Source: Caldicellulosiruptor naganoensis
GTDB lineage: Bacteria; Bacillota; Thermoanaerobacteria; Caldicellulosiruptorales; Caldicellulosiruptoraceae
Assembly: GCF_026914285.1 (NCBI RefSeq)
Contig: NZ_CP113864.1
Span: forward strand, 1 to 64,000
DNA: 64,000 nt
Reading direction: 5' to 3'
Below are positions 12,261 through 55,008 of the stretch, in pieces; within the stretch, counting starts at the first letter, position 1; the number at the start of each line of letters is the position of its first letter. The notes beneath the pieces were generated by a model that searched no databases, was not told the origin of the DNA, and saw only the letters and a program-made list of their open reading frames with translations. The translations under genes were made by a program, and so were the position numbers.

Positions 12261-15200
12261 GTTTCAATCCCCAAAGGGTAGGCTACAAACGCTTTAGCCC
12301 TAGGTCGCTAATTTTGCAATTCAGTAAGGTTTCAATCCCCAAAGGGGAGGCTACAAACATGGTTTGAGTTTTTCAGGGTTAGTATGTATTGCGTGTTTCA
12401 ATCCCCAAAGGGGAGGCTACAAACTAAAAAGCTGGCAAATCTCTGGAATGGTTTACATAAGTGTTTCAATCCCCAAAGGGGAGGCTACAAACACCGCATA
12501 AAGGAACGACGGTTGTAGACGTTTGGGAGTTTCAATCCCCAAAGGGGAGGCTACAAACGATACCAGTTTTGAGGTTAACATAAAAGTGGAAAGATGTTTC
12601 AATCCCCAAAGGGGAGGCTACAAACCAAAGAATGTGAAATAAGTCCCAGAACTTTCTATTACTGTTTCAATCCCCAAAGGGGAGGCTACAAACCAGAAAA
12701 GCAAACATGAAAAAGCTGGAAAGTATGGTGTTTCAATCCCCAAAGGGGAGGCTACAAACTGTGTAAGGCTGTTGTAGATAGGGCTTATTTGGAAGGTTTC
12801 AATCCCCAAAGGGGAGGCTACAAACAGTTCTTCACAAACCACTTCTGGTATTAGCGATCGTTTCAATCCCCAAAGGGGAGGCTACAAACTTCTTTTCCAT
12901 AAAACCCCCTCTCAACACTAATATCAAGTTTCAATCCCCAAAGGGGAGGCTACAAACCTATGTTGTGTCGTACAAAGTGCATGAATTTGAAGGGTTTCAA
13001 TCCCCAAAGGGGAGGCTACAAACAAAGCAAGAGTTATTGCATATGTTACTCTTGAAATGCCGTTTCAATCCCCAAAGGGGAGGCTACAAACGCAGCAAGG
13101 AGTTAGAAGAAAAGCTCTTAAACGAAAGTTTCAATCCCCAAAGGGGAGGCTACAAACTAGATACTATAATACTATGCAACTGATGGGCTATGAGTTTCAA
13201 TCCCCAAAGGGGAGGCTACAAACTAGCCAAAAACAAAAAGTAAAAAATCCTGTCAAAACCTGTTTCAATCCCCAAAGGGGAGGCTACAAACACGTTCCAC
13301 AGGATGGGACAGTGGATTTGGAAAAGTGTTTCAATCCCCAAAGGGGAGGCTACAAACTTAAGCTGTCTCCCTAAAAATTTTTAATTCTTAAGTGTTTCAA
13401 TCCCCAAAGGGGAGGCTACAAACCAGCGATGTCAATTGTATCAACATCTTCAAGAGCATTGGTTTCAATCCCCAAAGGGGAGGCTACAAACTTAGCTATT
13501 TTTTATTTGTGTGTTTTAGTCAAAAATTGTTTCAATCCCCAAAGGGGAGGCTACAAACAATTTTTTGGAACAAAGAGCTTTATAACGGGCTTGGGTTTCA
13601 ATCCCCAAAGGGGAGGCTACAAACATGGTTTGAGTTTTTCAGGGTTAGTATGTATTGCGTGTTTCAATCCCCAAAGGGGAGGCTACAAACTAAAAAGCTG
13701 GCAAATCTCTGGAATGGTTTACATAAGTGTTTCAATCCCCAAAGGGGAGGCTACAAACACCGCATAAAGGAACGACGGTTGTAGACGTTTGGGAGTTTCA
13801 ATCCCCAAAGGGGAGGCTACAAACGATACCAGTTTTGAGGTTAACATAAAAGTGGAAAGATGTTTCAATCCCCAAAGGGGAGGCTACAAACCAAAGAATG
13901 TGAAATAAGTCCCAGAACTTTCTATTACTGTTTCAATCCCCAAAGGGGAGGCTACAAACCAGAAAAGCAAACATGAAAAAGCTGGAAAGTATGGTGTTTC
14001 AATCCCCAAAGGGGAGGCTACAAACGGTGTGGAGCAGGGCTTTTGGCCCTACTCCCAGTAGTGGTTTCAATCCCCAAAGGGGAGGCTACAAACTGAAGCT
14101 TATAAAGGCTTTATACACAAATTTTATTGGTTTCAATCCCCAAAGGGGAGGCTACAAACTGAGGTTAAGCACATTAATATGAGGAATTACTTTTGGCGTT
14201 TCAATCCCCAAAGGGGAGGCTACAAACAATTGTACATTGCGTAGAATTGTTGCCGCAAAACGAGTTTCAATCCCCAAAGGGGAGGCTACAAACAAATTTA
14301 ATCGTTTTCCCATTAGAAAATGCACAATTAACGTTTCAATCCCCAAAGGGGAGGCTACAAACAACACGAAATCCTAGTTTTAAATTAGCAAAAAAAATTT
14401 GGTTTCAATCCCCAAAGGGGAGGCTACAAACACGAAAAACAAACAATAGGAATCAAAAAATCTAAATAGGGTTTCAATCCCCAAAGGGGAGGCTACAAAC
14501 TAAAAAAAAATAAAAAGGGAGTGGGAAGATGTATAAAGGTTTCAATCCCCAAAGGGGAGGCTACAAACACGTTCCACAGGATGGGACAGTGGATTTGAAA
14601 AAGTGTTTCAATCCCCAAAGGGGAGGCTACAAACTTCATGACGCTTCAAGCGGTGGTACAAGCAATCCTTGTTTCAATCCCCAAAGGGGAGGCTACAAAC
14701 TTCGGAGATGGAGAAACTATATGGTGAAGAAATAGCAGTTTCAATCCCCAAAGGGGAGGCTACAAACAAATTTAATCGTTTTCCCATTAGAAAATGCACA
14801 ATTAACGTTTCAATCCCCAAAGGGGAGGCTACAAACAGTATTTAATCTTTTCAAATACATTGTCAAAAAGTCATGTTTCAATCCCCAAAGGGGAGGCTAC
14901 AAACTAAGCAACGTCAAACGGTAACGAAAAAGGAAATTTTTTGTTTCAATCCCCAAAGGGGAGGCTACAAACTCAGGTCGTTCTGGGAAATGGACAGGCT
15001 GTAATTTGTTTCAATCCCCAAAGGGGAGGCTACAAACGTTTTTCAGAAGTGTTGCAAGGTAGGGGGATGGCTTGTTTCAATCCCCAAAGGGGAGGCTACA
15101 AACTGCTAAAGGGATTTTATAAAACAAAAACATTTAGAATGTTTCAATCCCCAAAGGGGAGGCTACAAACGGTGAAATAATGAAATACTTGAGATTTAAG

Positions 15201-15499
15201 GAAAAAGTTTCAATCCCCAAAGGGGAGGCTACAAACCACTAGACCCCATCTTCTTCAAGATGAAGAGTAATGCGCGTTTCAATCCCCAAAGGGGAGGCTA
15301 CAAACGTTAGTGGGTTAAAAGCACAGAGTAGTATTGGTTGTTTCAATCCCCAAAGGGGAGGCTACAAACAAAGTAGACCAGGATACCCAGGGAAGATACA
15401 AAGGTTTCAATCCCCAAAGGGGAGGCTACAAACTTTCTTTGCGGTGTTAACAAAGCTTAGTCGTTAGGAGTTTCAATCCCCAAAGGGGAGGCTACAAAC
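12261..15499 (-). CRISPR. CRISPR array A: 49 repeats, 48 spacers
   Basis: The 30-base repeat begins GTTTCAATCCCCAAAGGGG and ends AGGCTACAAAC on the plus strand; spacers are 34-39 bases. Transcription is leftwards: on the minus strand the repeat ends GGGGATTGAAAC, the type I 3' end, and the promoter-bearing leader is at the high-coordinate side. The oldest repeat (12261) has GGGTAGG where the other 48 have GGGGAGG. Six consecutive spacers are duplicated (see repeat entry). One 39-base spacer occurs twice identically (14294 and 14768). A 36-base spacer occurs twice with one base changed (13292 and 14569). Confidence 0.98.
12359..12759 (-). repeat. Six-spacer block duplicated within array A (second copy 13625-14025)
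   Basis: Spacers starting at 12359, 12425, 12493, 12559, 12626 and 12694, with their repeats, recur in the same order at 13625, 13691, 13759, 13825, 13892 and 13960. The spacers flanking the two blocks differ. Unequal recombination between repeats explains this better than re-acquisition. Confidence 0.93.
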
Positions 15500-28112: not shown

Positions 28113-28608
28113 GTTTCAATCTCCAAAGGGCAGGCTACAAACTAAGCTTAACAAGAGAGGAGGTGAGATCAAGACGAAGTTTCAATCCCCAAAGGGCAGG
28201 CTACAAACTACATATGCAAATCTAACACGTGTTAACCCAAAAGCGTTTCAATCCCCAAAGGGCAGGCTACAAACATAGGTTGAAGGGGATAGTGAAGAAG
28301 TTGAGGGAAATGTTTCAATCCCCAAAGGGCAGGCTACAAACGTATGACGAATTGGTTAAAGTGGCTATGGATTTAGAGTTTCAATCCCCAAAGGGCAGGC
28401 TACAAACGAGTAGCTTGTATTTAGGGATTGAGAGAGTTGAAGATGTTTCAATCCCCAAAGGGCAGGCTACAAACGTTTTTCAATCAAATATTTCTTTTGT
28501 TGTTGCGGCGGTTTCAATCCCCAAAGGGCAGGCTACAAACCCCTCTGGGGGGGAAACCGTTTATGCCGCGAAAGCCCTGTTTCAATCCCCAAAGGGCAGG
28601 CTACAAAC
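28113..28608 (-). CRISPR. CRISPR array B: 8 repeats, 7 spacers
   Basis: Repeats start at 28113, 28179, 28245, 28312, 28378, 28445, 28511 and 28579. The variant is GGGCAGG; the oldest repeat also has CTCC for CCCC. Spacers are 36-38 bases. Leader and promoter lie on the right, so transcription is leftwards. Spacer 28342-28377 covers the same codons as a diverged spacer in array E. Confidence 0.97.
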
Positions 28609-29136: not shown

Positions 29137-30465
29137 GTGAATGTACACAAAGCTTCGAATATCCTAATTTCCGTAATAGGCAAAGGTCGACTTAAAAAGG
29201 ACCAAACAGTGGGTTATGAACAAACTGAATACGTTTTTAATCCTGACTGTGAAAACAATAAAAGATATACAGCGTCAAAGACAGCCTTTTTTGGTATTGC
29301 CCTATATGAATATCTTAGAAACGTTGAGAGCATAAACATTGACAAGTTTATTATAATTGGCACTAATAAATCAGCGTGGTCAGAACTTTACCAAATTCTT
29401 CCCCATGATGTACAAAGCTCAGAAGGCATAACTGAGATGTGCTTGAAAGTGTATGAAGAAGAAAAGAAAGGTATTTCAGAGCAAACGCTTTTAAAGTGGC
29501 AAAATACTTTAACAAAGTATGTACCAAGCCTTAAGTTTCATAAAATAGAGCCAGTTGAACTTGGTAAAGGCATTGACATACTTTTGAAAGAGCTTGATAA
29601 AGATGGTGCCCACAATGTAATCTTTGACATGACGCACGCCTTTAGGAACATTCCTATTGTTTTTTCCTATGGTATAATGCTTTTGAAATATTTGAGAAAG
29701 ATAAACAACATAAGAATATTCTATGGTGCACATGAGATGAAAGAATACTTCTCAGGGCTTGTGGATGGACAATCTCCTGTAATTGAAATTTCTTTTATAG
29801 ACAAACTGGTCAAAATGATTGAGGCGATGGCTACCTTTGAAAATTCTGGCTACTTTGTGCCCATTTTGAATCAACTTGGTTTTGGCAACAAAGAGAAGAC
29901 ATATTTCAGGCTGGAGATGAACCGCCAGCCACGAAGAGAGATTGAAGAGATAATAAAAGGGCTTGAGGATAAACTAAATACAGCTGAGCATGATTATGAA
30001 AGAGAAATAGTTGAGATAATGTACAGAGAATTTTGTGAAATGAACAGGCAGGAAAAACTCTTTCAGAGAATGTACAAAAGATCTCAGTTTTTCTATGAAA
30101 GAAAACAGTATCTCAAGGCTTTGATTCTTCTTTATGAAGCAACAATTGTACTTTTTGCAGATGTATATAATATAAAAGACAATATGAATTACGATGCACG
30201 TGAAGAGGCACGAGATAAACTAAGAAATGAAATAAAGAATGTTGGATCTGATGCAAATTCAAATAGACTAATCAAAGACCAAGAGGAAGCAGAAATACTA
30301 AAAGAGTTAGAATATGTTAGGAACGCTGCAGTGCATGGTTCATCATCTCGCAGCAATCAAAACTATTTAGAAGATATTGACTCATTCAAAATACTTTTTA
30401 ATTCAGCGCTGAAAGTATTTGAAAAGCTACTCAGAAGAAGAGATGAGATTAAAAAAAGTTTCTGA
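29137..30465 (+). CDS. CARF-HEPN protein of the TM1812 (Csx2/Csx1-like) family
   Basis: 442 residues from a GTG with AAGGGGG nine bases upstream. The N-terminal CARF (Rossmann-like) domain shows NILISVIGKGRLKK, KFIIIGTNKSAWSELYQIL and the family motif FDMTHAFRNIPIVFSYGIML. The C-terminal HEPN domain has the RNase motif Rx4H as RNAAVH (Arg395-His400). Such proteins bind cyclic oligoadenylate made by Cas10 in type III systems and then cut RNA. No cas10 lies in this window, so its signal must come from elsewhere. It is transcribed toward the cas operon. Confidence 0.88.
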   Translation: MNVHKASNILISVIGKGRLKKDQTVGYEQTEYVFNPDCENNKRYTASKTAFFGIALYEYLRNVESINIDKFIIIGTNKSAWSELYQILPHDVQSSEGITEMCLKVYEEEKKGISEQTLLKWQNTLTKYVPSLKFHKIEPVELGKGIDILLKELDKDGAHNVIFDMTHAFRNIPIVFSYGIMLLKYLRKINNIRIFYGAHEMKEYFSGLVDGQSPVIEISFIDKLVKMIEAMATFENSGYFVPILNQLGFGNKEKTYFRLEMNRQPRREIEEIIKGLEDKLNTAEHDYEREIVEIMYREFCEMNRQEKLFQRMYKRSQFFYERKQYLKALILLYEATIVLFADVYNIKDNMNYDAREEARDKLRNEIKNVGSDANSNRLIKDQEEAEILKELEYVRNAAVHGSSSRSNQNYLEDIDSFKILFNSALKVFEKLLRRRDEIKKSF

Positions 30466-30680: not shown

Positions 30681-30732
30681 AAGGGAGAAAGCAAAAAGTA
30701 TTAAAAACTCAGGTAGCTTTCTCCCTTTGTTT
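30681..30732. terminator. Hairpin at the end of cas3
   Basis: AAGGGAGAAAGC (30681-30692) pairs perfectly with GCTTTCTCCCTT (30716-30727). The plus-strand tail is TGTTTT. The stem spans the cas3 stop codon, so it may end both the cas operon and the convergent CARF-HEPN transcript. Confidence 0.65.
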
Positions 30733-33175
30733 TAAAGCCTGTCATCAGGTCATAAAAGTCGTTGAGCTGGCTGTGCGGCACATAGAGTATAAGATTTTCA
30801 AAATTAGTGGGGATATTGTCTGTCTTTGGCACAGAGATGACGTAGTCGTAAAAACTTTTGCGAATCTCCAAAAACCTCTTTTTTCTTTCAAAAAAGTCTT
30901 TGATCTCACGAATTTCTACAAATCTCTGCCAGATAATTTTTGCTTCCTCATCTGCCTCAACAAATACATCTATTTTGTAAGGTTCATCCTCGATGAGTTT
31001 AAAACTTCCGATTGCCGCTGTCTCAGAGTCGGATGAGGTGTAAAGAAGTCTGTAAATTGCCTCAAGAAATTTTTGTGATGTTCCCTTATCGTCGCTGCTT
31101 GTTTCAATCACGCCGCGTCTTGCAAGTTCTTTGTAATACTCAAAGATTAGCTCTGCAAACTTACTTTCATCAACCTTTTGAAATTGACTTAAAATCTTTT
31201 TGGTTGCATCAATCAATAGACTATCATAAACCTCTGTTGCAAAAAGTCTTCCTCTTTCAGATACAAGTTCAACAACTGTTACTTTGCTCTTTCCTTTTTT
31301 GCCTTCTCTGTTTGCCCTTCCTGCTGCTTGGATGATTGAGTCAAGCGGAGCAATGTCTCTTACAACATGGTCAAAATCAACGTCAACCCCTGCTTCAACA
31401 AGCTGGGTTGATACAACAATTTTGTACTTCTTATTTTTAATTTGCTCAATTCTTCTCAATCTTTCTTTTGGGATTATATGAGTTGTCAGAATTGTAATTT
31501 CGTCCTGCATGTCAGGAAATCTTTGATTTATAAGTTCGTACAAGTTTTTTGCACTGCTTACAGTGTTCATGACAAAAAGGTAAGTTTTTTCTTCTTCAAA
31601 CTCAAAGTTTGCCACAAACTCTTCAAGTCTTATTTTTGAGAAATTATTGTCAAAATACAACTCTGTTCGACAAAGTTTGTCAAAATAGTTCTCCGGTTTT
31701 ACAATACTGATGGCTCTACTTTTGTCAACAATAAACGGCATTGTGGCAGTTGAAAGGATTATGTAGCAGTTTAGGCTATTACACATCTTCTCAAAAAGAT
31801 TCTTGCACAAAAACCAATACTCTGAGTTTATAGCCTGTACCTCATCAAGAATGATAATTGAATTAGCAATTCTGTGAAATTTTCTCATATTTGAATTTTT
31901 GTTTGTCAGAATACTCTCCAAAAACTGGACAAATGTAGTGACGATTATATTTGAGTTCCAGCCTTCTATTAAAAGTTTTGCAATGTCTTTGTCAAAGATT
32001 TCCTCTTGGTTGTTCTGAAGACCATCTTTGGTTTTGTAGGCAATATCACTTAGGTGATGGTGCTTTAAAATGATGTCTGAAGTTGTGTCAATGCCACAAA
32101 AGCTTAAAATCTGTGAGATGACGTTATAATTTTGCTCAATGATAGATAAAAAAGGAAGTGAGTAAATTATTCTAAATTTGCTGCCGAATTTATCTTGAGC
32201 AAATCTTCTTAGCTTTAGTGCAAAAGCAAAAGAGATAATAGTTTTTCCAAGCCCTGTTGGAAGACAGAGGGTGTAGATACGTCTATTTTCGTCAATCTCA
32301 CAATTTATTGCTTCTTCAAAAGCACTGTCTCTTAAAGCTTTTATTGAATTTTCGAAGTTTTCAGGCTTGAAAATTCTTCTCCTGAAACTATCCACATCAG
32401 TGTGAGAAAGGTTTAGCTCTGGAATATCAACCAAAGTGCCAAAGATTGCCTCTGTTTTGTCTGCATCCAGGAGGATAGAATACAACAAATTTAGCATGAA
32501 AAAGAATTTCATCTCTGTGTCAAAAAGCTTTCTGAAGGCTCTTTTAAAAAGCTTTATTGAGTTTTTTGCATGGTCTACAAATTCTCTTAAGATATCTGTT
32601 GTCAAAAAACCAATTTCAATTTCAGGGTAAAGAGTGGAAATATTAGAAATAAGAGTATTAAACTTCTCTTTGTCAATATTCTCAATCTGCTCATAGCAAA
32701 GTTCTAAATCATCTTCTGAGATCAATATCATATCTGATGCTGCTTCTAAATCACCGTGATGTTTTAAAGTAGCAAAAAATGCTAAAATTGCAGTAAAGCC
32801 TTCAAAAGCTTTGTCCTCTTGGATTTTCTTATCTTCAATGAGCCTATTTAATGTTCCCCAAACACAGATAGCAGAGATGAGAGAGTGGCGCGATAATCTG
32901 GTTTTTGGTTTCTTTTTATCAAAAAGATAAGCTTGAAAAAAAGAAGTTGCCTTGCCGATGTCATGCAGCAAGGCTGTAATTTTTGCAATCTGGGAAAGAA
33001 ACTTTGTTGAACAAAGTGCAATGTTCTTCTCTGAAGCAAAGGAGTTAGCTAAAATGCTGGTGTTTGCAAGATGAACCTCTAAAGGCTTTGCGCCTTCTAT
33101 CCCGCCGTCTTTGCCGGGGTGAGAAAAAAGGCCAGACAAATTTCTGTTATCAAAACAAAAGGATGTTCTCTCCAT
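30701..33175 (-). CDS. cas3: Cas3 helicase-nuclease (type I-B)
   Basis: Effector nuclease recruited by Cascade to degrade target DNA. The N-terminal HD domain shows an early histidine (EVHL) and LLHDIGKA. The SF2 helicase has CLPTGLGKT (Walker A, near residue 302), ILDEVQAI (DExx box), ILSTATMP and AAGRANREGK. I start at ATG 33175 (MERTSFCF); an ATG at 33190 is also in frame. Either overlaps cas5 (by 26 or 41 bases), so translation is coupled. Full length (about 824 residues), all motifs intact. Last cas gene of the operon. Confidence 0.95.
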   Translation of the reverse strand: MERTSFCFDNRNLSGLFSHPGKDGGIEGAKPLEVHLANTSILANSFASEKNIALCSTKFLSQIAKITALLHDIGKATSFFQAYLFDKKKPKTRLSRHSLISAICVWGTLNRLIEDKKIQEDKAFEGFTAILAFFATLKHHGDLEAASDMILISEDDLELCYEQIENIDKEKFNTLISNISTLYPEIEIGFLTTDILREFVDHAKNSIKLFKRAFRKLFDTEMKFFFMLNLLYSILLDADKTEAIFGTLVDIPELNLSHTDVDSFRRRIFKPENFENSIKALRDSAFEEAINCEIDENRRIYTLCLPTGLGKTIISFAFALKLRRFAQDKFGSKFRIIYSLPFLSIIEQNYNVISQILSFCGIDTTSDIILKHHHLSDIAYKTKDGLQNNQEEIFDKDIAKLLIEGWNSNIIVTTFVQFLESILTNKNSNMRKFHRIANSIIILDEVQAINSEYWFLCKNLFEKMCNSLNCYIILSTATMPFIVDKSRAISIVKPENYFDKLCRTELYFDNNFSKIRLEEFVANFEFEEEKTYLFVMNTVSSAKNLYELINQRFPDMQDEITILTTHIIPKERLRRIEQIKNKKYKIVVSTQLVEAGVDVDFDHVVRDIAPLDSIIQAAGRANREGKKGKSKVTVVELVSERGRLFATEVYDSLLIDATKKILSQFQKVDESKFAELIFEYYKELARRGVIETSSDDKGTSQKFLEAIYRLLYTSSDSETAAIGSFKLIEDEPYKIDVFVEADEEAKIIWQRFVEIREIKDFFERKKRFLEIRKSFYDYVISVPKTDNIPTNFENLILYVPHSQLNDFYDLMTGFKTKGESYLSF

Positions 33176-33881
33176 TTTGGACCTCCACATAACTTGATGG
33201 TCTTGCTAAAAGTTCTTTTCCAGTAGGTTCGAAAATGACGTCTTCGTATTTTACAACTTCTCTTGTCCTGAGCATGTAAAGTGGCATTCTCTCTTTAAAG
33301 TAGCTTTTTCCAGCTTCAATCCTTAGGGGTGTATCTGCTTTGCTATCTAAATAGCTTAAAGGAATTGGTGTGCAAAGGCTTACATAATCATCTGGCATGT
33401 CCTTTTCAAAAGCCTCAAATACTCCGACAAATTCAAAGTCAGCAAGAAATTCAGAAAGACCCATTGAAAGAGTGAAAAAGCTTTTGTGTTCTCGCAAAAA
33501 TTCAACAAGTTTTTGAAAGACATTGGTAGATGTATGGGTTGCGTAAATTCTAAAACAAGGATCTTTTAAAAGCTCAAACCTCATCTGTGTTCGTGGCTGG
33601 CGGTTTTTGGTTTTTATAGGCTGCCATCTTCCTTCTTTTGTGTCTATGTGATTTATTCCCATTCTGATTTTTTTCACAGGGGTTAAAATTCTTATGCCAG
33701 CCCGAAACTTACCATACTCTAAAACATCAAGATACTCTTTTTTGTCAAGACCCAAGATTGCTCCCACCATCCCCTGGATGGTTGGGAATGGTGGGAAAGG
33801 GTATGTTATTGGCGAAGATGTTGAATAAAACTTACCAAAAAAACCAAAGTCAGCTTTGATATCAAATACAGCTACTTTCAT
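33150..33881 (-). CDS. cas5b: Cas5 (type I-B Cascade subunit)
   Basis: 243-residue RAMP protein that caps the crRNA 5' handle in Cascade. The N-terminus MKVAVFDIKADFGFFGKFYS followed by PFPPFPTIQGMVGAILGL is the Cas5 pattern of the I-B (Hmari) type. It lies 22 bases after cas7 and overlaps cas3. Cas5 would contact the repeat-derived handle, which varies in the newest part of array E. Confidence 0.93.
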   Translation of the reverse strand: MKVAVFDIKADFGFFGKFYSTSSPITYPFPPFPTIQGMVGAILGLDKKEYLDVLEYGKFRAGIRILTPVKKIRMGINHIDTKEGRWQPIKTKNRQPRTQMRFELLKDPCFRIYATHTSTNVFQKLVEFLREHKSFFTLSMGLSEFLADFEFVGVFEAFEKDMPDDYVSLCTPIPLSYLDSKADTPLRIEAGKSYFKERMPLYMLRTREVVKYEDVIFEPTGKELLARPSSYVEVQNGENILLF

Positions 33882-33903
33882 ATCACATCACCTTAAAGCT
33901 TAA

Positions 33904-34887
33904 TCAATCAAATTTAAGAACTTTGACTCTATCACCCAAGAAAGAAAGAGCATCTTTTAGCTGAACAAATTTGCCCTCGCATACAAAGCTGAGAGAATCA
34001 TCAACAGCTACTTCAATCTTTTGAATCTTATCCTGATACTTTGTAAACTTTTCAACAAGTCGTGTAATATCAAGTTGGAAGTCTTCTGGTGATCGTATAG
34101 CAGTATCTGACTTTTGGGAAATGAGCTTCACAAGTTTGTCAAGTTCACCAATGTAAAAACCGCTCTGGTTATATTCAACCCTTACAAGAAGCCTTGGCAT
34201 CTGACCAAACTTTGAGCGTGAAATCAGGTTTTTGGTCCCGCACCAAAGAGCCTCTAAAAGAAGCTGAACATCTTGTTCTGTTACAGGCAACTCTTGACAT
34301 AAAGCTGCATTTTCATTTACAACACCATAAAAAGCAATCAGAGCATACGGTAGAATATAGCATTCTGTAAATGTTCCTTGGTCTTTTCCCTCTCCAGATG
34401 GCATAACTGTTGTGCCTTTGACAAGCATGTACTCGACTTTATGCAAAGACCTTCCGAATTTGAACTGAACAGGTCCTGTAAAGGTAATTGCGCCGGTTTC
34501 CTCTGATGAATCTTCGTCTGACTTGCTCTTTCTCTTTTCGTCCTTGCTCTTTAAAGTGGTTGTACCCCCAAAAAGCCTTATGTCAATGTAGTCTTTTAAC
34601 TTTTCTTTGCTGAGATTATACTTTGAGAATTTGTCAGACTTTGTCATGAGCTTTCCATCTTCGGAGATTTCTCTTAAGATGAACACAGGCAAGTTCTTGT
34701 ACTCTGCCCAGTAATCCCTGCAGGTTCTTTTTAAGCGCACATCTGTTACTATGCATATATCTGTCTCAGGGTCAATTCTTGGCTTATTTTCATCAAGTGG
34801 GTCACCGTTTGGGTTTGCGTCTGTTACATCGTATAAAAACAAAATCTCAGACCTGTTTTTGATAATGTTATTGTTTAAATTTTCCAT
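33904..34887 (-). CDS. cas7b: Cas7 (Csh2 family, type I-B Cascade backbone)
   Basis: 327 residues. Backbone subunit that polymerises along the crRNA spacer. The start region RSEILFLYDVTDANPNGDPL and DVRLKRTCRDYWAEY are hallmarks of the Cas7/Csh2 family (NPNGDP; the VRLKRxxRD segment). An insertion rich in K, S and D (KSKDEKRKSKSDEDSSEETG) precedes FTGPVQFKFGRSLHKVE. Preceded by cas8b (49 bases) on the same strand. Confidence 0.95.
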   Translation of the reverse strand: MENLNNNIIKNRSEILFLYDVTDANPNGDPLDENKPRIDPETDICIVTDVRLKRTCRDYWAEYKNLPVFILREISEDGKLMTKSDKFSKYNLSKEKLKDYIDIRLFGGTTTLKSKDEKRKSKSDEDSSEETGAITFTGPVQFKFGRSLHKVEYMLVKGTTVMPSGEGKDQGTFTECYILPYALIAFYGVVNENAALCQELPVTEQDVQLLLEALWCGTKNLISRSKFGQMPRLLVRVEYNQSGFYIGELDKLVKLISQKSDTAIRSPEDFQLDITRLVEKFTKYQDKIQKIEVAVDDSLSFVCEGKFVQLKDALSFLGDRVKVLKFD

Positions 34888-34936
34888 ATCGAAAATTCCC
34901 CCTTCTGATTATTTGAATTTTTTAAAACATAAGGTT

Positions 34937-36868
34937 TTATTCTTCATCTTCAGCCTCTTCTATGTCATTTGTCAATTTCTTTGCAAGGTCCCTGATTTTT
35001 TGACCAAGATTCATACCACAGGCAAAGTAAAAACTTACCTCATCGGAAGATAATTTCCAGTCAGCTGGCGCTTTTAGCAAAAGATCTGAAGCTGTAGCAG
35101 CAACAAGTTTCTTTGCCTTGCCAAACGCTGAGTATTCCATAAGTTTGTTTTCAATCTTTGGCAGAAGTGAGATGATATCAGCTTGTTTTAACCTAAGCCC
35201 TTTCAAATTTTTGGCAAACGGCGGCATTTTTCCAGGCGCTTTTTTAAGACCCGCTGACTGAATTCTCAAAAGCATGTCACAAAGCGCGCCAACAAGGATA
35301 ATTCCTTTTACAGCAGGGTTTGCAGATGCAACAGGAAACTCATTTAAAATCTCGTCAAACGGAGTTTCAAAAGGCATATTCATCTCATCTCCTTTTAGCT
35401 TTAAAATGTTTAGTTTACTCAGAAATTCTAAAACTTCCATTGCATAGCTACAAGAAACGTAGAAAGCTGATAAGTCGCTATTTACAATGTCATCCTGAAG
35501 CCTTCGACAAAAATGAGAGAGTAAAAAGTCAAAGTCAATTGGCTTTTTCTTAAAAATGCTTTCTGTTATCTCTAAAAAATAGCTGTCGAGATCTGGCTTT
35601 TTCCTAAGCCTGTTGCTCTTTGAGAAAAAGTATTTAATCTGCTGGAATGTAAAGTCAATGTCAGGGTTGTCAAAGAGTTTGCGAAATTTCTTTTCTGTAT
35701 GTCTTTTTGCATCAAATATGTTCTTTAAGTGTGATGGAAAAACATCTTCAATCAGAAGGACAATTCTCTCCGCGCCCATTTGTGTTGTTAAAAACAGGAA
35801 TGTAACTGACATAGAGTCATTAAATTCGCTCACAATTTCAAGAATTTCATTTTCATCGTCTGTGATATGCTCTAATTTTCTCTCACCAAGTCGGATGTCT
35901 TTTTGTGTTTTTTCAAGAATATCAAGGATTTCTGCATATTCAGAGTCAAATCCAAGTGTAAACTTTGGTATGAGAAGGTATCTAAAGTTGTAAAATTTAA
36001 ATTGAAGGTTTTGTTCCAAGTACTTTCTACTTCTACTGAGGTGTGTATGACAGCTTGAACATACAGGGAAGTTTTTCCATGCATTCTCAGGCGAAAATCC
36101 ACCTTTTATAAACCCCGGCTTATCAATGGTATAGAATTTGAAAACGTTGACCATACCAGAGACATTTTCTCTTTTTTGTTTGCACAAAGAACATGTTTTA
36201 TCCTGCGAACTTGACCTTTGGTTTTTCTCTTTTATAAGTTCAAGCAAAAACAGTTTGAAAATCTCATATTCGCCAATGTACTTACCATTGATGAGAAAAG
36301 AGAGAAGTATGCTATTTCCTTTTTTAAGCTCAATGTCATAAATGGTTTGGGAAATGTCATCTATAATTCTTTTTCTTTGCTCTTTTATGGTTTGTGTTAT
36401 CTTTTCAATAAAATCTGCATCAGATTGAGTTAAAATTTTTAATTTCGAGAATTTCTTAGCAAGAGGCTGTGCCTTGTTCGAAAACCAGTTTTCAACCTTT
36501 TGCTGAAACGTCTTTTCAACTTGGGATTTTATGTTATCTTTTATTTGGGCCTCTGACATATTTTTTGTAGCTTTTGGCTTTACAAGAGTACATGTAGGTG
36601 AAAAGTTTGTCCCACCGCCTTTTGCACCTTGGCTGAAAAGGTAAAATTGTGTTCTTGACTCCATTGGGTCTTGAAGTTCAAGCCCGCAGTATTCAAACTT
36701 TCCCTGGTTTTGATTTAAAAGGATAAAAAGAATTTTTTCGCTTTCAATTCGCGATAAAAAAGAAGAAAGATTATTTGATAAAACATCAGAGGAGCTGCCC
36801 TCTTGTGAGACTGACTTTGATTTTCCCTCCAGCACGAATCTACCCAGTTCAGCAACAGCTTCAATCAT
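34937..36868 (-). CDS. cas8b: Cas8b large subunit (Csh1/TM1802 family)
   Basis: 643 residues, the large Cascade subunit that recognises the PAM. The zinc-finger-like pairs CSLCKQKRE (near residue 223) and CSSCHTHLSRSRKYLEQNL (near 270) are typical of Csh1/TM1802-type Cas8b. The rest is weakly conserved, as usual for this subunit. It sits between cas2 and cas7. The type I-B assignment rests on this gene together with Csh2-type Cas7. Confidence 0.88.
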   Translation of the reverse strand: MIEAVAELGRFVLEGKSKSVSQEGSSSDVLSNNLSSFLSRIESEKILFILLNQNQGKFEYCGLELQDPMESRTQFYLFSQGAKGGGTNFSPTCTLVKPKATKNMSEAQIKDNIKSQVEKTFQQKVENWFSNKAQPLAKKFSKLKILTQSDADFIEKITQTIKEQRKRIIDDISQTIYDIELKKGNSILLSFLINGKYIGEYEIFKLFLLELIKEKNQRSSSQDKTCSLCKQKRENVSGMVNVFKFYTIDKPGFIKGGFSPENAWKNFPVCSSCHTHLSRSRKYLEQNLQFKFYNFRYLLIPKFTLGFDSEYAEILDILEKTQKDIRLGERKLEHITDDENEILEIVSEFNDSMSVTFLFLTTQMGAERIVLLIEDVFPSHLKNIFDAKRHTEKKFRKLFDNPDIDFTFQQIKYFFSKSNRLRKKPDLDSYFLEITESIFKKKPIDFDFLLSHFCRRLQDDIVNSDLSAFYVSCSYAMEVLEFLSKLNILKLKGDEMNMPFETPFDEILNEFPVASANPAVKGIILVGALCDMLLRIQSAGLKKAPGKMPPFAKNLKGLRLKQADIISLLPKIENKLMEYSAFGKAKKLVAATASDLLLKAPADWKLSSDEVSFYFACGMNLGQKIRDLAKKLTNDIEEAEDEE

Positions 36869-36947
36869 TTTTTTGGCACCTCTTTGATTTTACTAAAATT
36901 TAGCTTATCACAACCAAATTAGAATTTCAACCATGTAACTTAATTTT

Positions 36948-37211
36948 TTAAATAAATCTGTCTAAGTTGTTTTTCTCAACACCAAGTATTTCTCTTTGGG
37001 AATAGAGGCGACTTTGAAAGTTGTAAATAATAACAGAGTCTTCTTCAAGGTTTAGCTTTTGAGAAAGCTCAAACTTTAGCTTTTTCAGCTTTGCCTCTGA
37101 AATCTCACCTTCAAACACAGAGTTTTGCACCCAGTTGAGGTATTTTCGGCACACCTTTAATGCTTTTGCAACACGCTTTTCATTGACATCGTACACGAGG
37201 ATTGTGTACAA
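36948..37211 (-). CDS. cas2: Cas2 adaptation endonuclease/scaffold
   Basis: 87 residues. The start MYTILVYDVNEKRVAKALKV has the conserved aspartate (D8) after the first strand, followed by RKYLNWVQNSVFEGE as in Cas2 of I-B systems. It forms the integration complex with Cas1. Gap to cas1 is 16 bases. Confidence 0.97.
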   Translation of the reverse strand: MYTILVYDVNEKRVAKALKVCRKYLNWVQNSVFEGEISEAKLKKLKFELSQKLNLEEDSVIIYNFQSRLYSQREILGVEKNNLDRFI

Positions 37212-37227
37212 ATCCTCTTCACCTCAA

Positions 37228-38232
37228 TTACCATTGGGTTACATATGGCTGATATTCCTTTTCGCCCATGAGATGCTTTTCAATCTTATAAAGCTCAATT
37301 CTTATAAGCTGCCTGTATGAGACATAATTACCAATGTTCTTAACAGAGATTGTTGTTGAGAGTCTTTGTTCAAGTTCATCAATAAAAAGCTTTTTGGCAA
37401 AATCTGTGATAACTATTCCCTCTAAGTCCTGTTCAAAGTGCTCGGGCTTTAACATGTTCTTTGAGATTATTGAAAAGATAAGCCTGTCGACAATTATTGG
37501 CTTGAAGATTTCAGCAACGTCTAAGTTGAGTGTAAATCTTCTGAAATTTGTAGCGTGAAGATATCCTATCCGTGGGTCAAGATGAGTTCTGTAAATTTCT
37601 GAAAGAACAATTGTGTACATCATTGAATTGCCAAAACTAATTAGTGTATTGAGTGCATTTTTTGGTGGGCGTTTTGACCTTTTTTCAAACTTGAACTCAT
37701 CTTTGTCTATGATGAGGTCAAAGGCTGAGTAATAGGTTTGCCTAATGTTTCCTTCAATTGCCATAAGGGAGTTTATATCATTTGTGTAGTTGATTTTGCT
37801 GAATAAGTTTTCTATTTGCTCTATATAAATTTTCAGGTCATCAATCCCACGGCTTTGATAATATTTTAATATTTGTCTCATATTTTTGTATGCGCCTTCC
37901 ACAAATGCTTTTGCAAGGTAAAGTCTTTTGTTAGGGTCAAGATAATGTTCAGCTTGTTTTAGAATCATGTATCCAGAGTTTAGGTACTCACGTGGATAAA
38001 AGCTTCCAACGTAGTAGCCATACCTGTTGAAAAAGTGTAGAATTATCTCACTTTGAGTCAAAAACTCTAAAAATCTTTTGTTCAGCTCAACTTCTCCAAA
38101 GATATAAATCTCAGAAGTGTTTTCGACAGGTATGAACTTTTGCACACCTTCACTTTCAAAATACAGAGTGTTGTTTTTTCTTCTCAAGCTACCATCTGAA
38201 AAAATGTAAATTGGTCTTTTCATGCCCAGCAA
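37228..38232 (-). CDS. cas1: Cas1 integrase
   Basis: 334 residues. Metal-dependent integrase inserting new spacers at the leader end. Conserved catalytic positions are visible: glutamate in LMAIEGNIRQTYY, histidine in GYLHATNFRRF and acidic residues in LDVAEIFKPIIVDRLIF. N-terminal beta domain starts MKRPIYIFSDGSLRRKNNT if translation begins at 38223 rather than 38232. It overlaps the cas4 3' end by a few bases. Confidence 0.97.
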   Translation of the reverse strand: MLGMKRPIYIFSDGSLRRKNNTLYFESEGVQKFIPVENTSEIYIFGEVELNKRFLEFLTQSEIILHFFNRYGYYVGSFYPREYLNSGYMILKQAEHYLDPNKRLYLAKAFVEGAYKNMRQILKYYQSRGIDDLKIYIEQIENLFSKINYTNDINSLMAIEGNIRQTYYSAFDLIIDKDEFKFEKRSKRPPKNALNTLISFGNSMMYTIVLSEIYRTHLDPRIGYLHATNFRRFTLNLDVAEIFKPIIVDRLIFSIISKNMLKPEHFEQDLEGIVITDFAKKLFIDELEQRLSTTISVKNIGNYVSYRQLIRIELYKIEKHLMGEKEYQPYVTQW

Positions 38233-38723
38233 AACTCCTTATACGAACATTTTGAACATGCTTTGATTTTCTGTGGTTGGGGTGGTAATTGAGAGTACAA
38301 AAATAAAGCAATCTCTTCTGTAAGAGTTTCTATTTCTTCTATATCGTCAGTAGTGAGTTCAACATCAAAAGTCTTTTTCTCTTCAGGAATAAGAAGTTTG
38401 CCACGCGCTTTAATGTTGTTTTTAAAGAGCTTATACAGGTAGAATTTTAACTGCAAGATTGCAGCATTCTTTGCACGTGATGATCTTTTAATTTCCCCAA
38501 CCAGTAAGACTTCATCTTCTTGCCTGATAAGGTCTAAAACTACCCCGTCAAAGTAGACTTCTTTTTTATCATTCTTGTAATACTCTTGCGATATTAACTT
38601 GCCTATCTCCAAAAATGGATTGTCTGACGATGGACCGATATTTCGCGACAAAAGCCACGCCTGTCTTTTGCAAACAATGTATGCTTGTACAATCGAACCT
38701 TTGATGTCAAAAGCCTTTTCCAA
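38220..38723 (-). CDS. cas4: Cas4 RecB-like nuclease
   Basis: About 167 residues. Processes prespacers and sets PAM and orientation. RecB-type motifs are seen: VYFDGVVLDLI, LLVGEIKRS and AAILQLKFYLYKL. Fe-S cluster cysteines are one near the N-terminus (VCKRQAWL) and three at the end (ACSKCSYKEFCW). I start at TTG 38723 because AAGAAGG lies ten bases upstream; an in-frame TTG at 38744 has no such site. First gene of the cas operon, directly beyond the old end of array C. Confidence 0.93.
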   Translation of the reverse strand: MEKAFDIKGSIVQAYIVCKRQAWLLSRNIGPSSDNPFLEIGKLISQEYYKNDKKEVYFDGVVLDLIRQEDEVLLVGEIKRSSRAKNAAILQLKFYLYKLFKNNIKARGKLLIPEEKKTFDVELTTDDIEEIETLTEEIALFLYSQLPPQPQKIKACSKCSYKEFCWA

Positions 38724-38806
38724 CTGCTTCTGACCTTCTTTCAAACAGCCGATTTTGAAATTTACAATTAAAATTTTACTTGTTTGAAACCTTTAAGAAA
38801 GGTCAA

Positions 38807-38884: not shown

Positions 38885-40649
38885 TTCTCAATCCCCAAAG
38901 GGAGGCTACAAACTATTTAGCCAAAGCGATTGGGAAAAGCGTTGCTGAGGTAGTTTCAATCCCCAAAGGGTAGGCTACAAACAAAATGAGGATTGTGGTG
39001 TATGGCTCAGGTGTGCGTGTTTCAATCCCCAAAGGGTAGGCTACAAACTTAGTTGACAAGAAATTCCAAACGTTGTAAGTATACGTTTCAATCCCCAAAG
39101 GGTAGGCTACAAACAAAGTTTTTTAGTCAAAGTAGAAAACTTGGTTATGACAGTTTCAATCCCCAAAGGGTAGGCTACAAACAAAGTGGTTAGTGCCTTG
39201 AGCTAACATCGGTATCTTAGTTTCAATCCCCAAAGGGTAGGCTACAAACTTGCACCACCTGCTCATGGTGTTCCAAGCAATTCTCTCGTTTCAATCCCCA
39301 AAAGGTAGGCTACAAACCGACTACCAGAAGGAAAGTTTTCTCTTTACTAATACGTTTCAATCCCCAAAGGGTAGGCTACAAACAATAAATATGGGAATTG
39401 TGAAATATGTGGAAAACCTGTGTTTCAATCCCCAAAGGGTAGGCTACAAACTTTTCAATATCAACGATGTTGAAGGATTGCCGAAGAAAGTTTCAATCCC
39501 CAAAGGGTAGGCTACAAACATGTTCACGTTCATAGTTTGATAGTTACAAGAGAAAGTTTCAATCCCCAAAGGGCAGGCTACAAACGTTGTTCGGGTAGCT
39601 CTTCAACAAGTGAAAACACAGCTGTTTCAATCCCCAAAGGGCAGGCTACAAACGGAAATCAAAGATATTAGTGCTTTAAGAGCGAATGTGTTTCAATCCC
39701 CAAAGGGCAGGCTACAAACACTCAAAGAGCTATATAATGGAAACGTAAAAAGTTTCAATCCCCAAAGGGCAGGCTACAAACTTTTCAGTTAGTGTCATAT
39801 TTCTAATATCAATTGTGTTTCAATCCCCAAAGGGCAGGCTACAAACCTTTAAACTTCCATGTTCCTTGAGGTTCAAGATTGTGTTTCAATCCCCAAAGGG
39901 CAGGCTACAAACCCGTTTGGGCTATGCCAGATGGTAGCGTGAAAAAGGAAGTTTCAATCCCCAAAGGGCAGGCTACAAACGGATATGACATTATATTGAT
40001 AACGCAGTTCGACAGAAGTTTCAATCCCCAAAGGGCAGGCTACAAACAGGGATTTTGATAAGTTTATGAAGAAGCTAAAAAGAGTTTCAATCCCCAAAGG
40101 GCAGGCTACAAACATTATTTCATGTCTTAAGATTTCGACCTGCTCATCTGGTTTCAATCCCCAAAGGGCAGGCTACAAACAAAAAATAACAAGAAGTGAT
40201 TTGCTTCAAGCAATAGACAAGTTTCAATCCCCAAAGGGCAGGCTACAAACATAATAGAACGTATAAGCGTCCATGTAAGGATTAGGTGTTTCAATCCCCA
40301 AAGGGCAGGCTACAAACAGAAGCCGTGATAATTGATTTGGGCTCACACTTTTTGGTTTCAATCCCCAAAGGGCAGGCTACAAACTGCAGATGGTTGGGCT
40401 GGAAACGGTGTGCTAGGAACAGTTTCAATCCCCAAAGGGCAGGCTACAAACATTCTAAGAGAACTCTCAAACTACAAGAGATTAAAAGTTTCAATCCCCA
40501 AAGGGCAGGCTACAAACATATCTGGACTCAATTGTAGCAATGCAGCATTACAAGTTTCAATCCCCAAAGGGCAGGCTACAAACTAACCCAAGAGAGAAAA
40601 TATTTGTGCAAATAACACCGTTTCAATCCCCAAAGGGCAGGCTACAAAC
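38885..40649 (-). CRISPR. CRISPR array C: 27 repeats, 26 spacers
   Basis: Array beside cas4. Nine repeats at the old end (38953 to 39490) carry GGGTAGG (one of them, 39288, has AAAAGGTAGG). From 39556 to 40620 every repeat carries GGGCAGG. The first repeat (38885) is one base short and altered, and a still more degraded copy lies at about 38855-38880. Spacers are 32-40 bases. Leader on the right; transcription leftwards toward the cas genes. Confidence 0.97.
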
Positions 40650-42993: not shown

Positions 42994-44415
42994 ATGAAGA
43001 TTATTTGCCAAATTGGGCGATTTGACAATCCCAAAGCTGCGCTAAAAGAGTTTTTTATAACCAAATTTAATGATGAGGTTGTAAACTTTTAAAAAGTTTC
43101 AGAGCTTTCCAGCTTTGTTTTAAGGAATTTTTTAAGACAGCAAGGGCAAGAGGCAAAAGCAGCTGTGATTTATCCTGTCAGCATTGTTCTAAATGAAAGG
43201 CTCAAAGATTGGGTAGAAGATGACTCATTAAAAGAGGAACTGGAAAGGATATATGAAAATCCTTCAGAATATCTCAAATCTCCTTTTGGAATAATAGACA
43301 GGCTTCCTCTTGAGAGGCTGAGAGATGAAACAGTTGTGATTCATTCGCTTGGGACATATCTTAAAAATATAGAGCTTGATGGTAGCTATGACGATATAGT
43401 CCCTGAGATTCTGTTTGACATGATAGAAAGGTATATGAATGAAGATGTGGATGAGATTTATCTTGACATCTCAAGTGGGCACAACATATACATATCAGCA
43501 ATGATAGAGGCATCAAGGCATTTTGCGGTTTTTACAAGACTTATGCACTGGATTCATGAAGAAAAGCGCCCAAAGATATACCTTACGTTTTCAGACCCTA
43601 TTATAGGAAGCACAGCAAAATCTTTTGAGATACATATTCAGCCACAGATCTATACAGCTTTTTTCTCATCCCCGATCAGCAAAAAAGAAGCCTGCGACCA
43701 CAACTTTTCGTTTTTGAGAAATATCTATCAAGAGCCACAAGATGACCAGAAAGGCAACAATAAAGTTTTGCAAAAGCAACAAATACGACAGAAGAGAAAG
43801 TTTTTGAAAGAAAAGATAGAAATGTTTACCATTTTATTTTCAGCAATCAAAAATAACGTTCCACTGTATTTGTACTACCATCCATACCATTCTAGAGATG
43901 AGATAAAAAATGAACTTAAAAATCTCATCAGCCATGCAAAAGACCAGCTTTTAAAAGACTTTAAAAGCTCTCCAAAGCTCAACAAAAAAGCATACTTAGA
44001 TGCAATTTTGAGTTTGGGATTTTACATGGGCATTGTTGAGGTTTTAGAGAAATACAACATTACAATGTTTTGCCAAGAGACTGGGTTTGATTTGGAGAAT
44101 CTTGGGAAGACTTTTGCAGAGATTTATACAATATTTGGTATTCCGATGAACTGGACAATGCTTGGCAATAAGATTTCAAACGACACTGAAAAGATACAGG
44201 CGTATGGTGAGACTCAGCAGTGGACAAGGCTTAGAAAAATTGTCGACCCAACAAAACCAATTGCCGATGAACCAGACAAGAGAAATTTCTTTGCACATTC
44301 AGGGCTTGAAGGCAATGTCACAGAAGTCAAGTACGACGGCCTCAAAGTGTATGTTAGATATATTCGGGGACTTCCACAGGGCATGATAGACTGCTGGTTG
44401 AAAGAAAGAGTGTGA
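42994..44415 (+). pseudogene. csx1: csx1 (CARF-HEPN) with an in-frame stop codon near the start
   Basis: The natural start is ATG 42994 (MKIICQIGRFDNPKAALKEF), but a TAA at 43090-43092 stops it after 32 codons. The same frame then runs open to 44415 (KVSELSSFVLRNFLRQQGQE, then IYPVSIVLNERLKDW). The rest is a complete Csx1: CARF motif YLDISSGHNIYISAMIEASR and HEPN RNase motif RNFFAHSG (Arg430-His435 counting from 42994). Re-initiation at GTG 43165 would lack the first CARF strand. So the gene is either dead, truncated, or miscalled at one base. Confidence 0.85.
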
Positions 44416-50633: not shown

Positions 50634-52185
50634 GTTTCAATCCCCAAAGGGCAGGCTACAAACTACTAAAAATACAAAATCGTTAAGGAGGGAATAATTA
50701 GTTTCAATCCCCAAAGGGCAGGCTACAAACTGTAGGACAGCCAATTCCGACAACTGTTTACAATGGTTTCAATCCCCAAAGAACAGGCTACAAACGCTTT
50801 TTGAAGGCAAAAATTGGGTGTTAGAGGTGTGTTTCAATCCCCAAAGGGCAGGCTACAAACTCACCTAGAAAACTTGTGGTAGAAGTATATGGTCGGTTTC
50901 AATCCCCAAAGGGCAGGCTACAAACCTATCAGGTTTTTGATGCAAAACTTTAAGCTTTCAGAGTTTCAATCCCCAAAGGGCAGGCTACAAACGGATTTGC
51001 AGATGTGCGGAAATACTGTCTATTTTTGTTTCAATCCCCAAAGGGCAGGCTACAAACCACAACAAAAAACAAAAGTATTTAGAGTAAGTAACAGTTTCAA
51101 TCCCCAAAGGGCAGGCTACAAACCTTGCCCACAAACACAGTAGACCCAGACCAGGTCTGTTTCAATCCCCAAAGGGCAGGCTACAAACAAAGGCTCAAAA
51201 ATAAATGAAGGAGGTTGATAAAAAGTTTCAATCCCCAAAGGGCAGGCTACAAACGTAGTGGAAAAATTAGGAGAAGAATTCACATATGCAGGGTTTCAAT
51301 CCCCAAAGGGCAGGCTACAAACTGATGAGGGATGCTTGTGATTCCAGTTTTTAAAGTTGTGTTTCAATCCCCAAAGGGCAGGCTACAAACTTATTGTGGA
51401 ACTGGTTTATATTGCTCATCCATTTAGGTTTCAATCCCCAAAGGGCAGGCTACAAACCTGGGTATGAGATGTTCAATAGCTAATCAAAGGAAAGCGTTTC
51501 AATCCCCAAAGGGCAGGCTACAAACACCCACATGTGCCCTACCCCACCGGGGTTGGTTGTGTTTCAATCCCCAAAGGGCAGGCTACAAACGCAACAAAAA
51601 GGAAGACCTACGGAGTGGTTTTACGTTTCAATCCCCAAAGGGCAGGCTACAAACGCAACAAAAAGGAAGACCTACGGAGTGGTTTTACGTTTCAATCCCC
51701 AAAGGGCAGGCTACAAACGCAACAAAAAGGAAGACCTACGGAGTGGTTTTACGTTTCAATCCCCAAAGGGCAGGCTACAAACGCACGTGTTTCGATGGTG
51801 TTATGTGTATTGTCTTCTTTGGTTTCAATCCCCAAAGGGCAGGCTACAAACAAAGGCTGGCATGTACATTGTCATGTTTTAATTGTTACGTTTCAATCCC
51901 CAAAGGGCAGGCTACAAACACAGAGATGCTTATTACAACAAAGAAGCAAATGAAAGGTTTCAATCCCCAAAGGGCAGGCTACAAACCAGTTGTTATGAAA
52001 GGTAGCAAAAACTATGATGACGAGTTTCAATCCCCAAAGGGCAGGCTACAAACTTGAGGTTTTTCAAGGGTTAGAAGGTAATCATAGTGGTTTCAATCCC
52101 CAAAGGGCAGGCTACAAACGCGTTGCAAAAGTGTGACGCAAATCGTGAAATCTTAGTTTCAATCCCCAAAGGGCAGGCTACAAAC
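50634..52185 (-). CRISPR. CRISPR array D: 24 repeats, 23 spacers
   Basis: GGGCAGG-type repeats. One repeat (50766) reads AAAGAACAGG instead. A 34-base spacer is present three times in tandem (from 51591, 51655 and 51719). Other spacers are 34-38 bases. Leader on the right, transcription leftwards. Confidence 0.97.
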
Positions 52186-53649: not shown

Positions 53650-55008
53650 GCATCAATCCCCAAAGGGCAGGCTACAAACGCAGACAGTGGAAGAAATAAA
53701 CACATACTTAAATTTGTTTCAATCCCCAAAGGGCAGGCTACAAACTGCTTTCCTTGAACGCTTCATTGTCAGCACGTATAAGTTTCAATCCCCAAAGGGC
53801 AGGCTACAAACACAGCAAAGCTCTTTTCGTGTCTAAGTGCAAAATCGGTTTCAATCCCCAAAGGGCAGGCTACAAACAGATGTCTTTATACTTCATGAAT
53901 CTGCAGAAGAAGCGTTTCAATCCCCAAAGGGCAGGCTACAAACTGATAAAGGTTTTATATCTCATGATTGGAGTTTAAAGTTTCAATCCCCAAAGGGCAG
54001 GCTACAAACAATACAATAGGCCTCATGTATGAGAAGCAACGAAAAATGTTTCAATCCCCAAAGGGCAGGCTACAAACTTAGTTGAGGTGAATAATGTATG
54101 ATTTATCTCTACAGTGTTTCAATCCCCAAAGGGCAGGCTACAAACAAACTAAGCTTTATCTCAAACCTTGTTACAGGTTCAGTTTCAATCCCCAAAGGGC
54201 AGGCTACAAACTTAGCTGGGCCTATCTCACCGTCGCTGTCTACCATAGTTTCAATCCCCAAAGGGCAGGCTACAAACGTATGATGAGCTTTTGAAGATAG
54301 CGGTTGATTTGGAGTTTCAATCCCCAAAGGGCAGGCTACAAACAATACTAAAATTGAAGGATAGAGTATGGGAATGTCCGTTTCAATCCCCAAAGGGCAG
54401 GCTACAAACGTGTTGAGGACACAGGCAGTACAAGGGGTTAAGCAGTGTTTCAATCCCCAAAGGGCAGGCTACAAACAATTTTTTGAGACCTCATAAACAT
54501 TTACAGATTGAGTTTCAATCCCCAAAGGGCAGGCTACAAACGAAAAGTTACATGGGAAAAAGCTTTCAGAATTACCTGAGTTTCAATCCCCAAAGGGCAG
54601 GCTACAAACGAAAAGTTACATGGGAAAAAGCTTTCAGAATTACCTGAGTTTCAATCCCCAAAGGGCAGGCTACAAACAGTTCAGGAATTCAAACAATGAA
54701 TCTTATACCAAAATCATTTCAATCCCCAAAGGGCAGGCTACAAACACCAAGCGTTGAAATTATTGATATTGAGACTTTCAATTTCAATCCCCAAAGGGCA
54801 GGCTACAAACGCTTATTGTTATGAAGTTTGAAGATTTTCTTGATTTATTTCAATCCCCAAAGGGCAGGCTACAAACCAGGCAACGTTGGCACGACACCCA
54901 TATCATAATCTATTTCAATCCCCAAAGGGCAGGCTACAAACTAACAGGGATAATAAACAAGCTTTTGGGATATTTGAAATTTCAATCCCCAAAGGGCAGG
55001 CTACAAAC
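53650..55008 (-). CRISPR. CRISPR array E: 21 repeats, 20 spacers
   Basis: GGGCAGG-type repeats. The oldest (53650) has GCATC for GTTTC. The five newest repeats (54716, 54781, 54847, 54912, 54979) begin ATTTC instead of GTTTC, which changes the last base of the crRNA 5' handle from C to T (U). A 38-base spacer occurs twice in tandem (54542 and 54610). Spacer 54278-54313 is homologous to one in array B. Leader on the right. Confidence 0.97.

What the first reader, a model, noticed from the sequence alone, without database searches (positions are those of the whole stretch)
28342..28377. Arrays B and E hold spacers against the same codons of two diverged target genes
Spacer 28342-28377 and spacer 54278-54313 are both 36 bases and match at only 23 positions, yet in the same frame they encode YDELVKVAMDL and YDELLKIAVDL. 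Most differences are synonymous. So both were taken from the same place in homologous genes of related invaders, with the same ends and hence the same PAM position. The host met at least two lineages of one virus or plasmid family.
Basis: partly seen in the sequence, partly recalled or inferred. Interest (0 to 1): 0.65.

Follow-up and report, generated by a model that had tools for sequence, protein, structure and literature searches.

The report
Two spacers, same site, diverged genes
Two CRISPR arrays of one heat-loving bacterium hold memory sequences that look taken from exactly the same spot of two distant versions of one invader gene, which is how such immune memory is expected to build up against related invaders, although the invaders themselves have not been found.

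Summary
Spacers 28342-28377 and 54278-54313 are both 36 nt and identical at 23 positions. Of the 13 differences, 9 fall at third and 4 at first codon positions, none at second; they translate to YDELVKVAMDL and YDELLKIAVDL. This is the best distinct pair in the window (BLOSUM62 46, next 33). No dinucleotide-shuffled set (100) and no decoy pair genus-wide reaches 46.

The reading 'same protospacer in homologous coding sequences' is well supported. Among 1,364 unique spacers from 12 genomes of the genus, 34 pairs score at least 46 at protein level (decoys 0); this is the most diverged pair with identical PAM-side ends. A third spacer, in another species, encodes YDELMKVRFDLQ from the opposite strand. 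The locus is type I-B, with a 5'-TCN/TTN PAM.

The target gene was not found in viral contigs, genome contigs or about 400 phylum genomes. The shared PAM and 'two lineages of one virus or plasmid family' therefore remain inferences. Independent acquisition from homologous sites is a known process; this is an unusually diverged example within one genome.

The parts
28342..28377 (+). Spacer 1 of the pair, 36 nt; + strand reads G|YDELVKVAMDL|GA. The crRNA is inferred to run on the - strand. Fourth spacer from the inferred leader end.
54278..54313 (+). Spacer 2 of the pair, 36 nt; + strand reads G|YDELLKIAVDL|GA. Eleventh spacer from the inferred leader end.
28113..28608 (-). CRISPR array holding spacer 1 (8 repeats, 7 spacers; leftmost repeat has one mismatch)
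53650..55008 (-). CRISPR array holding spacer 2 (21 repeats, 20 spacers; leftmost repeat degenerate)
30701..33190 (-). cas3 (HD nuclease and helicase)
   Evidence: TIGR01587 and TIGR01596
33150..33881 (-). cas5b
   Evidence: TIGR02592
33904..34887 (-). cas7 (Csh2)
   Evidence: TIGR02590
34937..36868 (-). cas8b (Csh1)
   Evidence: TIGR02556 and TIGR02591
37228..38232 (-). cas1b
   Evidence: TIGR03641
38220..38744 (-). cas4
   Evidence: TIGR00372

Best explanation
[quoted passage not shown] A PAM kept at the same codon in both homologues, together with a fixed length ruler, would give both spacers the same ends. With 13 mismatches between them, each is expected to act mainly against its own lineage. 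Shown here: array context, homology in one coding frame, identical ends, type I-B genes, the PAM of the repeat family, and a third homologous spacer in another species. Inferred: the target gene, its mobile element, the shared PAM and the lack of cross-protection.
For: 23/36 identity with differences 9/4/0 over codon positions 3/1/2. Protein score 46 against 33 for the next distinct pair, at most 40 in shuffled sets and 0 of about 1.86 million decoy comparisons. Genus-wide, 34 protein-level homologous spacer pairs at score 46 or more; among same-strand pairs below 90% identity, 8 share the PAM-side end exactly and 8 are shifted. Third spacer YDELMKVRFDLQ in G007. Type I-B cas genes and PAM TCN/TTN. 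Other spacers of the same arrays match prophage-like regions and a plasmid of the genus with 0-2 mismatches.
Against: No target found in any collection. The flanks, hence the PAM, are unseen. The third spacer scores only 40-41, where a few decoys also occur.
Confidence: 0.85

Rival explanations
1. Chance resemblance between two unrelated spacers.
For: Short sequences; the pair was picked by eye from thousands of possible pairs; no target is known.
Against: All shuffle, decoy and host-DNA controls; no second-position differences; identical length and ends, which the score does not use.
Confidence: 0.03
2. One ancestral spacer was duplicated between arrays and the copies then mutated.
For: Duplicated or near-identical spacers do exist here: 28209 recurs with one mismatch at 213.4 kb, and 13292/14569 differ by one base.
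Against: An untranslated spacer has no reason to keep second codon positions and a reading frame through 13 changes, while the flanking repeats stayed identical. Known copies in this genome differ by 0-1 base.
Confidence: 0.02
3. A version of the main explanation: the first spacer primed acquisition from the second, related invader, so the two events are linked.
For: Type I system. Priming in E. coli is reported to tolerate up to 13 mutations in PAM or protospacer (PMC4782391), the number of mismatches here.
Against: Priming does not specifically return the same protospacer, the seed region differs at position 3, and naive acquisition at a conserved PAM explains the pair equally well.
Confidence: 0.08

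Closest known systems
Independent acquisition of spacers from one locus in Thermus (PMC6452258)
   Same: Thermophile arrays; pairs of spacers inferred to have been taken independently from the same locus
   Different: There the pairs were shared (near-identical) spacers in different system types or partly overlapping; here the pair is only 64% identical, has the same ends and lies in one genome
Two independently acquired spacers at one protospacer in Legionella type I-C (PMC5071653)
   Same: The same protospacer sampled twice independently
   Different: Identical plasmid target in a laboratory experiment; here the targets are diverged homologues from natural history
Spacers without known target, the spacerome dark matter (PMC7308287)
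   Same: No database match for either spacer
   Different: Comparing spacers with each other at protein level recovers a relation without any target sequence

Membership tests
Type I-B CRISPR-Cas locus | cas8b, cas7, cas5b, cas3 and cas1b near the arrays | tested here: met
   NCBIfam matches above curated cut-offs at 30701-38744
Type I-B CRISPR-Cas locus | PAM at the 5' side of the protospacer | tested here: met
   TCN 21 and TTN 13 of 61 best hits for this repeat family; the list includes chance hits
Independent acquisition from homologous protospacers | Homologous, non-identical spacer sequences in one coding frame | tested here: met
Independent acquisition from homologous protospacers | Same spacer ends | tested here: met
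   Both 36 nt, offset 0
Independent acquisition from homologous protospacers | Protospacers present in homologous genes of mobile elements, each with a PAM | tested here: inconclusive
   No target found
Primed adaptation | New spacer acquired because an existing mismatched spacer recognised the invader | not testable with these tools
   Needs an acquisition experiment

The most novel reading that the evidence does not exclude
Adaptation in this genus returns preferentially to the same protospacers in strongly diverged homologues, because the PAM bases sit on the first two positions of a conserved codon, so that conserved coding motifs act as repeat acquisition sites across invader lineages.
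Probability: 0.15. Interest if true: 0.5.

Novelty: new member of a known kind. Interest (0 to 1): 0.3.

Why it matters
Two spacers that differ at 36% of positions can be tied to one gene site without knowing the target. Applied to a genus, protein-level spacer-to-spacer comparison recovers dozens of relations among immune memories whose targets are mostly unsequenced, and offers a way to measure how often hosts re-sample one site as invaders diverge.

Tried and rejected
Target searches: strict and relaxed degenerate DNA patterns for the peptide in viral contigs (8 scans), genome contigs (2 scans) and genus, class and phylum genomes, and blastn of each spacer against phages; no credible target. 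Candidates examined and dropped: (a) Exo I region of phage DNA polymerases (GYDDYDELLRMEFDLETEGL, L194, L197, L202, L206): residue pattern fits, but the next residue T would place GTN where TCN/TTN is expected. (b) A small viral protein beginning M(N/D)DEELIK(V/L/I)L(I/M)DLEKKG (L218, L220, L223, L227, L232): compatible with a TTN PAM, but only about 7 of 12 residues match and its contigs share nothing convincing with prophage-like regions of the genus; a weak search for it in the genus gave nothing. (c) nagB of a deer-gut Clostridia genome, 30/36: mismatches lie at the PAM side, and about 0.15 such matches are expected by chance at that database size (my estimate). (d) An HsdM in G045 and an archaeal protein in L210: chance-level. 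The first host-DNA control (random 36-mers from relatives) was unusable because those loci contain homologous regions and arrays; searches replaced it.

Full report
Observation. The window lies in a 2.49 Mb single-contig genome; a small plasmid hit and the repeat family point to the genus Caldicellulosiruptor (inference). It holds 124 spacers, 114 unique, between repeats GTTTCAATCCCCAAAGGG[G/C/T]AGGCTACAAAC. On the minus strand the repeat ends in ATTGAAAC and the degenerate repeats lie at the left ends of three arrays, so crRNAs are taken to run on the minus strand with leaders at the right (inference from general repeat anatomy). They align without gaps over 36 bases with 23 identities; differences fall 9, 4 and 0 at third, first and second codon positions. 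The peptides are YDELVKVAMDL and YDELLKIAVDL.

Chance. Six-frame ungapped comparison of all window spacers ranks the pair first among distinct spacers (46, next 33), apart from 13292/14569, which differ by one base. The best of 100 shuffled sets reached 40. Non-overlapping 36-mers of the same genome reach 46 in 58 of 3.24 million pairs, nearly all from duplicated genes.

Surroundings. Between the arrays lie cas4, cas1b, cas8b, cas7, cas5b and cas3 of a type I-B system. Two CRISPR-associated genes, TIGR02221 family at 29137-30465 and csx1 at 43165-44415, hint at a type III component. Both crRNAs of the pair are antisense to the inferred mRNA, so either effector type could use them; not tested.

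PAM. Window spacers were compared with relatives and genus spacers with the fetched regions. Best hits of this repeat family are preceded by TCN (21 of 61) or TTN (13 of 61); the list contains chance hits, so the true share is probably higher. One protospacer on the 1.5 kb plasmid pYA01-2 of C. diazotrophicus (35/36) has CCT. For the pair, TCN/TTN on the crRNA strand means that on the coding strand the final GA is followed by N, then G or A, then A: the wobble base of the E/D codon and the first two bases of an E, D, K or N codon. A conserved residue there would keep the PAM in both homologues. This is a prediction, not an observation.

Genus-wide comparison. Spacers were extracted from 12 genomes: 1,364 unique, of two repeat families; the fetched regions do not cover every array. 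Translated all-against-all comparison gives 34 pairs scoring 46 or more, against 0 for decoys in twice as many comparisons. Some of these are near-identical and may be shared or duplicated spacers. Among same-strand pairs below 90% identity (score 44 or more), 8 share the PAM-side end exactly and 8 are shifted. Exact sharing is thus over-represented per offset, but if only TCN sites can be sampled (about 0.055 per position, about 18 detectable shifts) roughly 1.2 shifted pairs per exact pair are expected (my estimate), so no special hot spot is needed. The pair in question is the most diverged exact pair (64%). The third spacer, in G007 (C1:10549-10586), encodes YDELMKVRFDLQ with its crRNA on the opposite strand. 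It is a post-hoc match at a score where decoys begin to appear: supporting evidence, not proof.

Target. None was found. Pattern searches of public viral contigs, one genome per bacterial and archaeal species, and 398 phylum genomes return only the two array copies or unrelated and weakly similar genes. Most spacers in general lack database matches (PMC7308287), so absence is unsurprising. The gene family stays open: the alternating hydrophobic residues before D-L-E would suit a beta strand, such as an exonuclease motif, but a helix is not excluded.

Conclusion. Certainty about the PAM and the invader should be lowered until targets are found. Independent acquisition from one locus has been reported in Thermus and Legionella, so this is a clear example of a known process.

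Noticed in passing
12359-12729 and 13625-13995; 13292-13327 and 14569-14604: Array 12261-15499 holds a six-spacer block twice. Spacers 13292 and 14569, each the 15th counted from the start of its block, differ by one base, while the spacers between differ; 14294 and 14768 are identical. A block duplication followed by replacement, or repeated acquisition, could explain it.
   Followed up: partly
13292-13327; L073:10747: Spacer 13292 (and 14569) has a homologue with the same PAM-side end in an array of another species (31/35 identical), a further case of one protospacer sampled from diverged relatives.
   Followed up: partly
28209-28244; G000:C1:213427-213462: A spacer of the array with spacer 1 recurs with one mismatch in a second array of the same genome; it is a shared spacer and not a self-target.
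   Followed up: yes
14160-14197; L074:7381: Spacer homologous (32/36, same end) to one in an array of a different repeat family, whose protospacers are preceded mostly by CCN; two systems appear to have sampled one site.
   Followed up: partly
39520-39555 and 51852-51889: Translations VHVHSLIVTRE and WHVHCHVLIV resemble an HxH motif of rolling-circle Rep proteins; possibly a second, shifted pair, but the score (29) is at chance level.
   Followed up: no
40048-40083: Matches the 1,547-base plasmid pYA01-2 of Caldicellulosiruptor diazotrophicus at 35/36.
   Followed up: yes
52120-52155: Reads RFHDLRHTFAT, a tyrosine recombinase motif, and matches prophage-like regions of two relatives with 0-1 mismatch.
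   Followed up: partly
51591-51752: One spacer occurs three times in a row in the same array.
   Followed up: no
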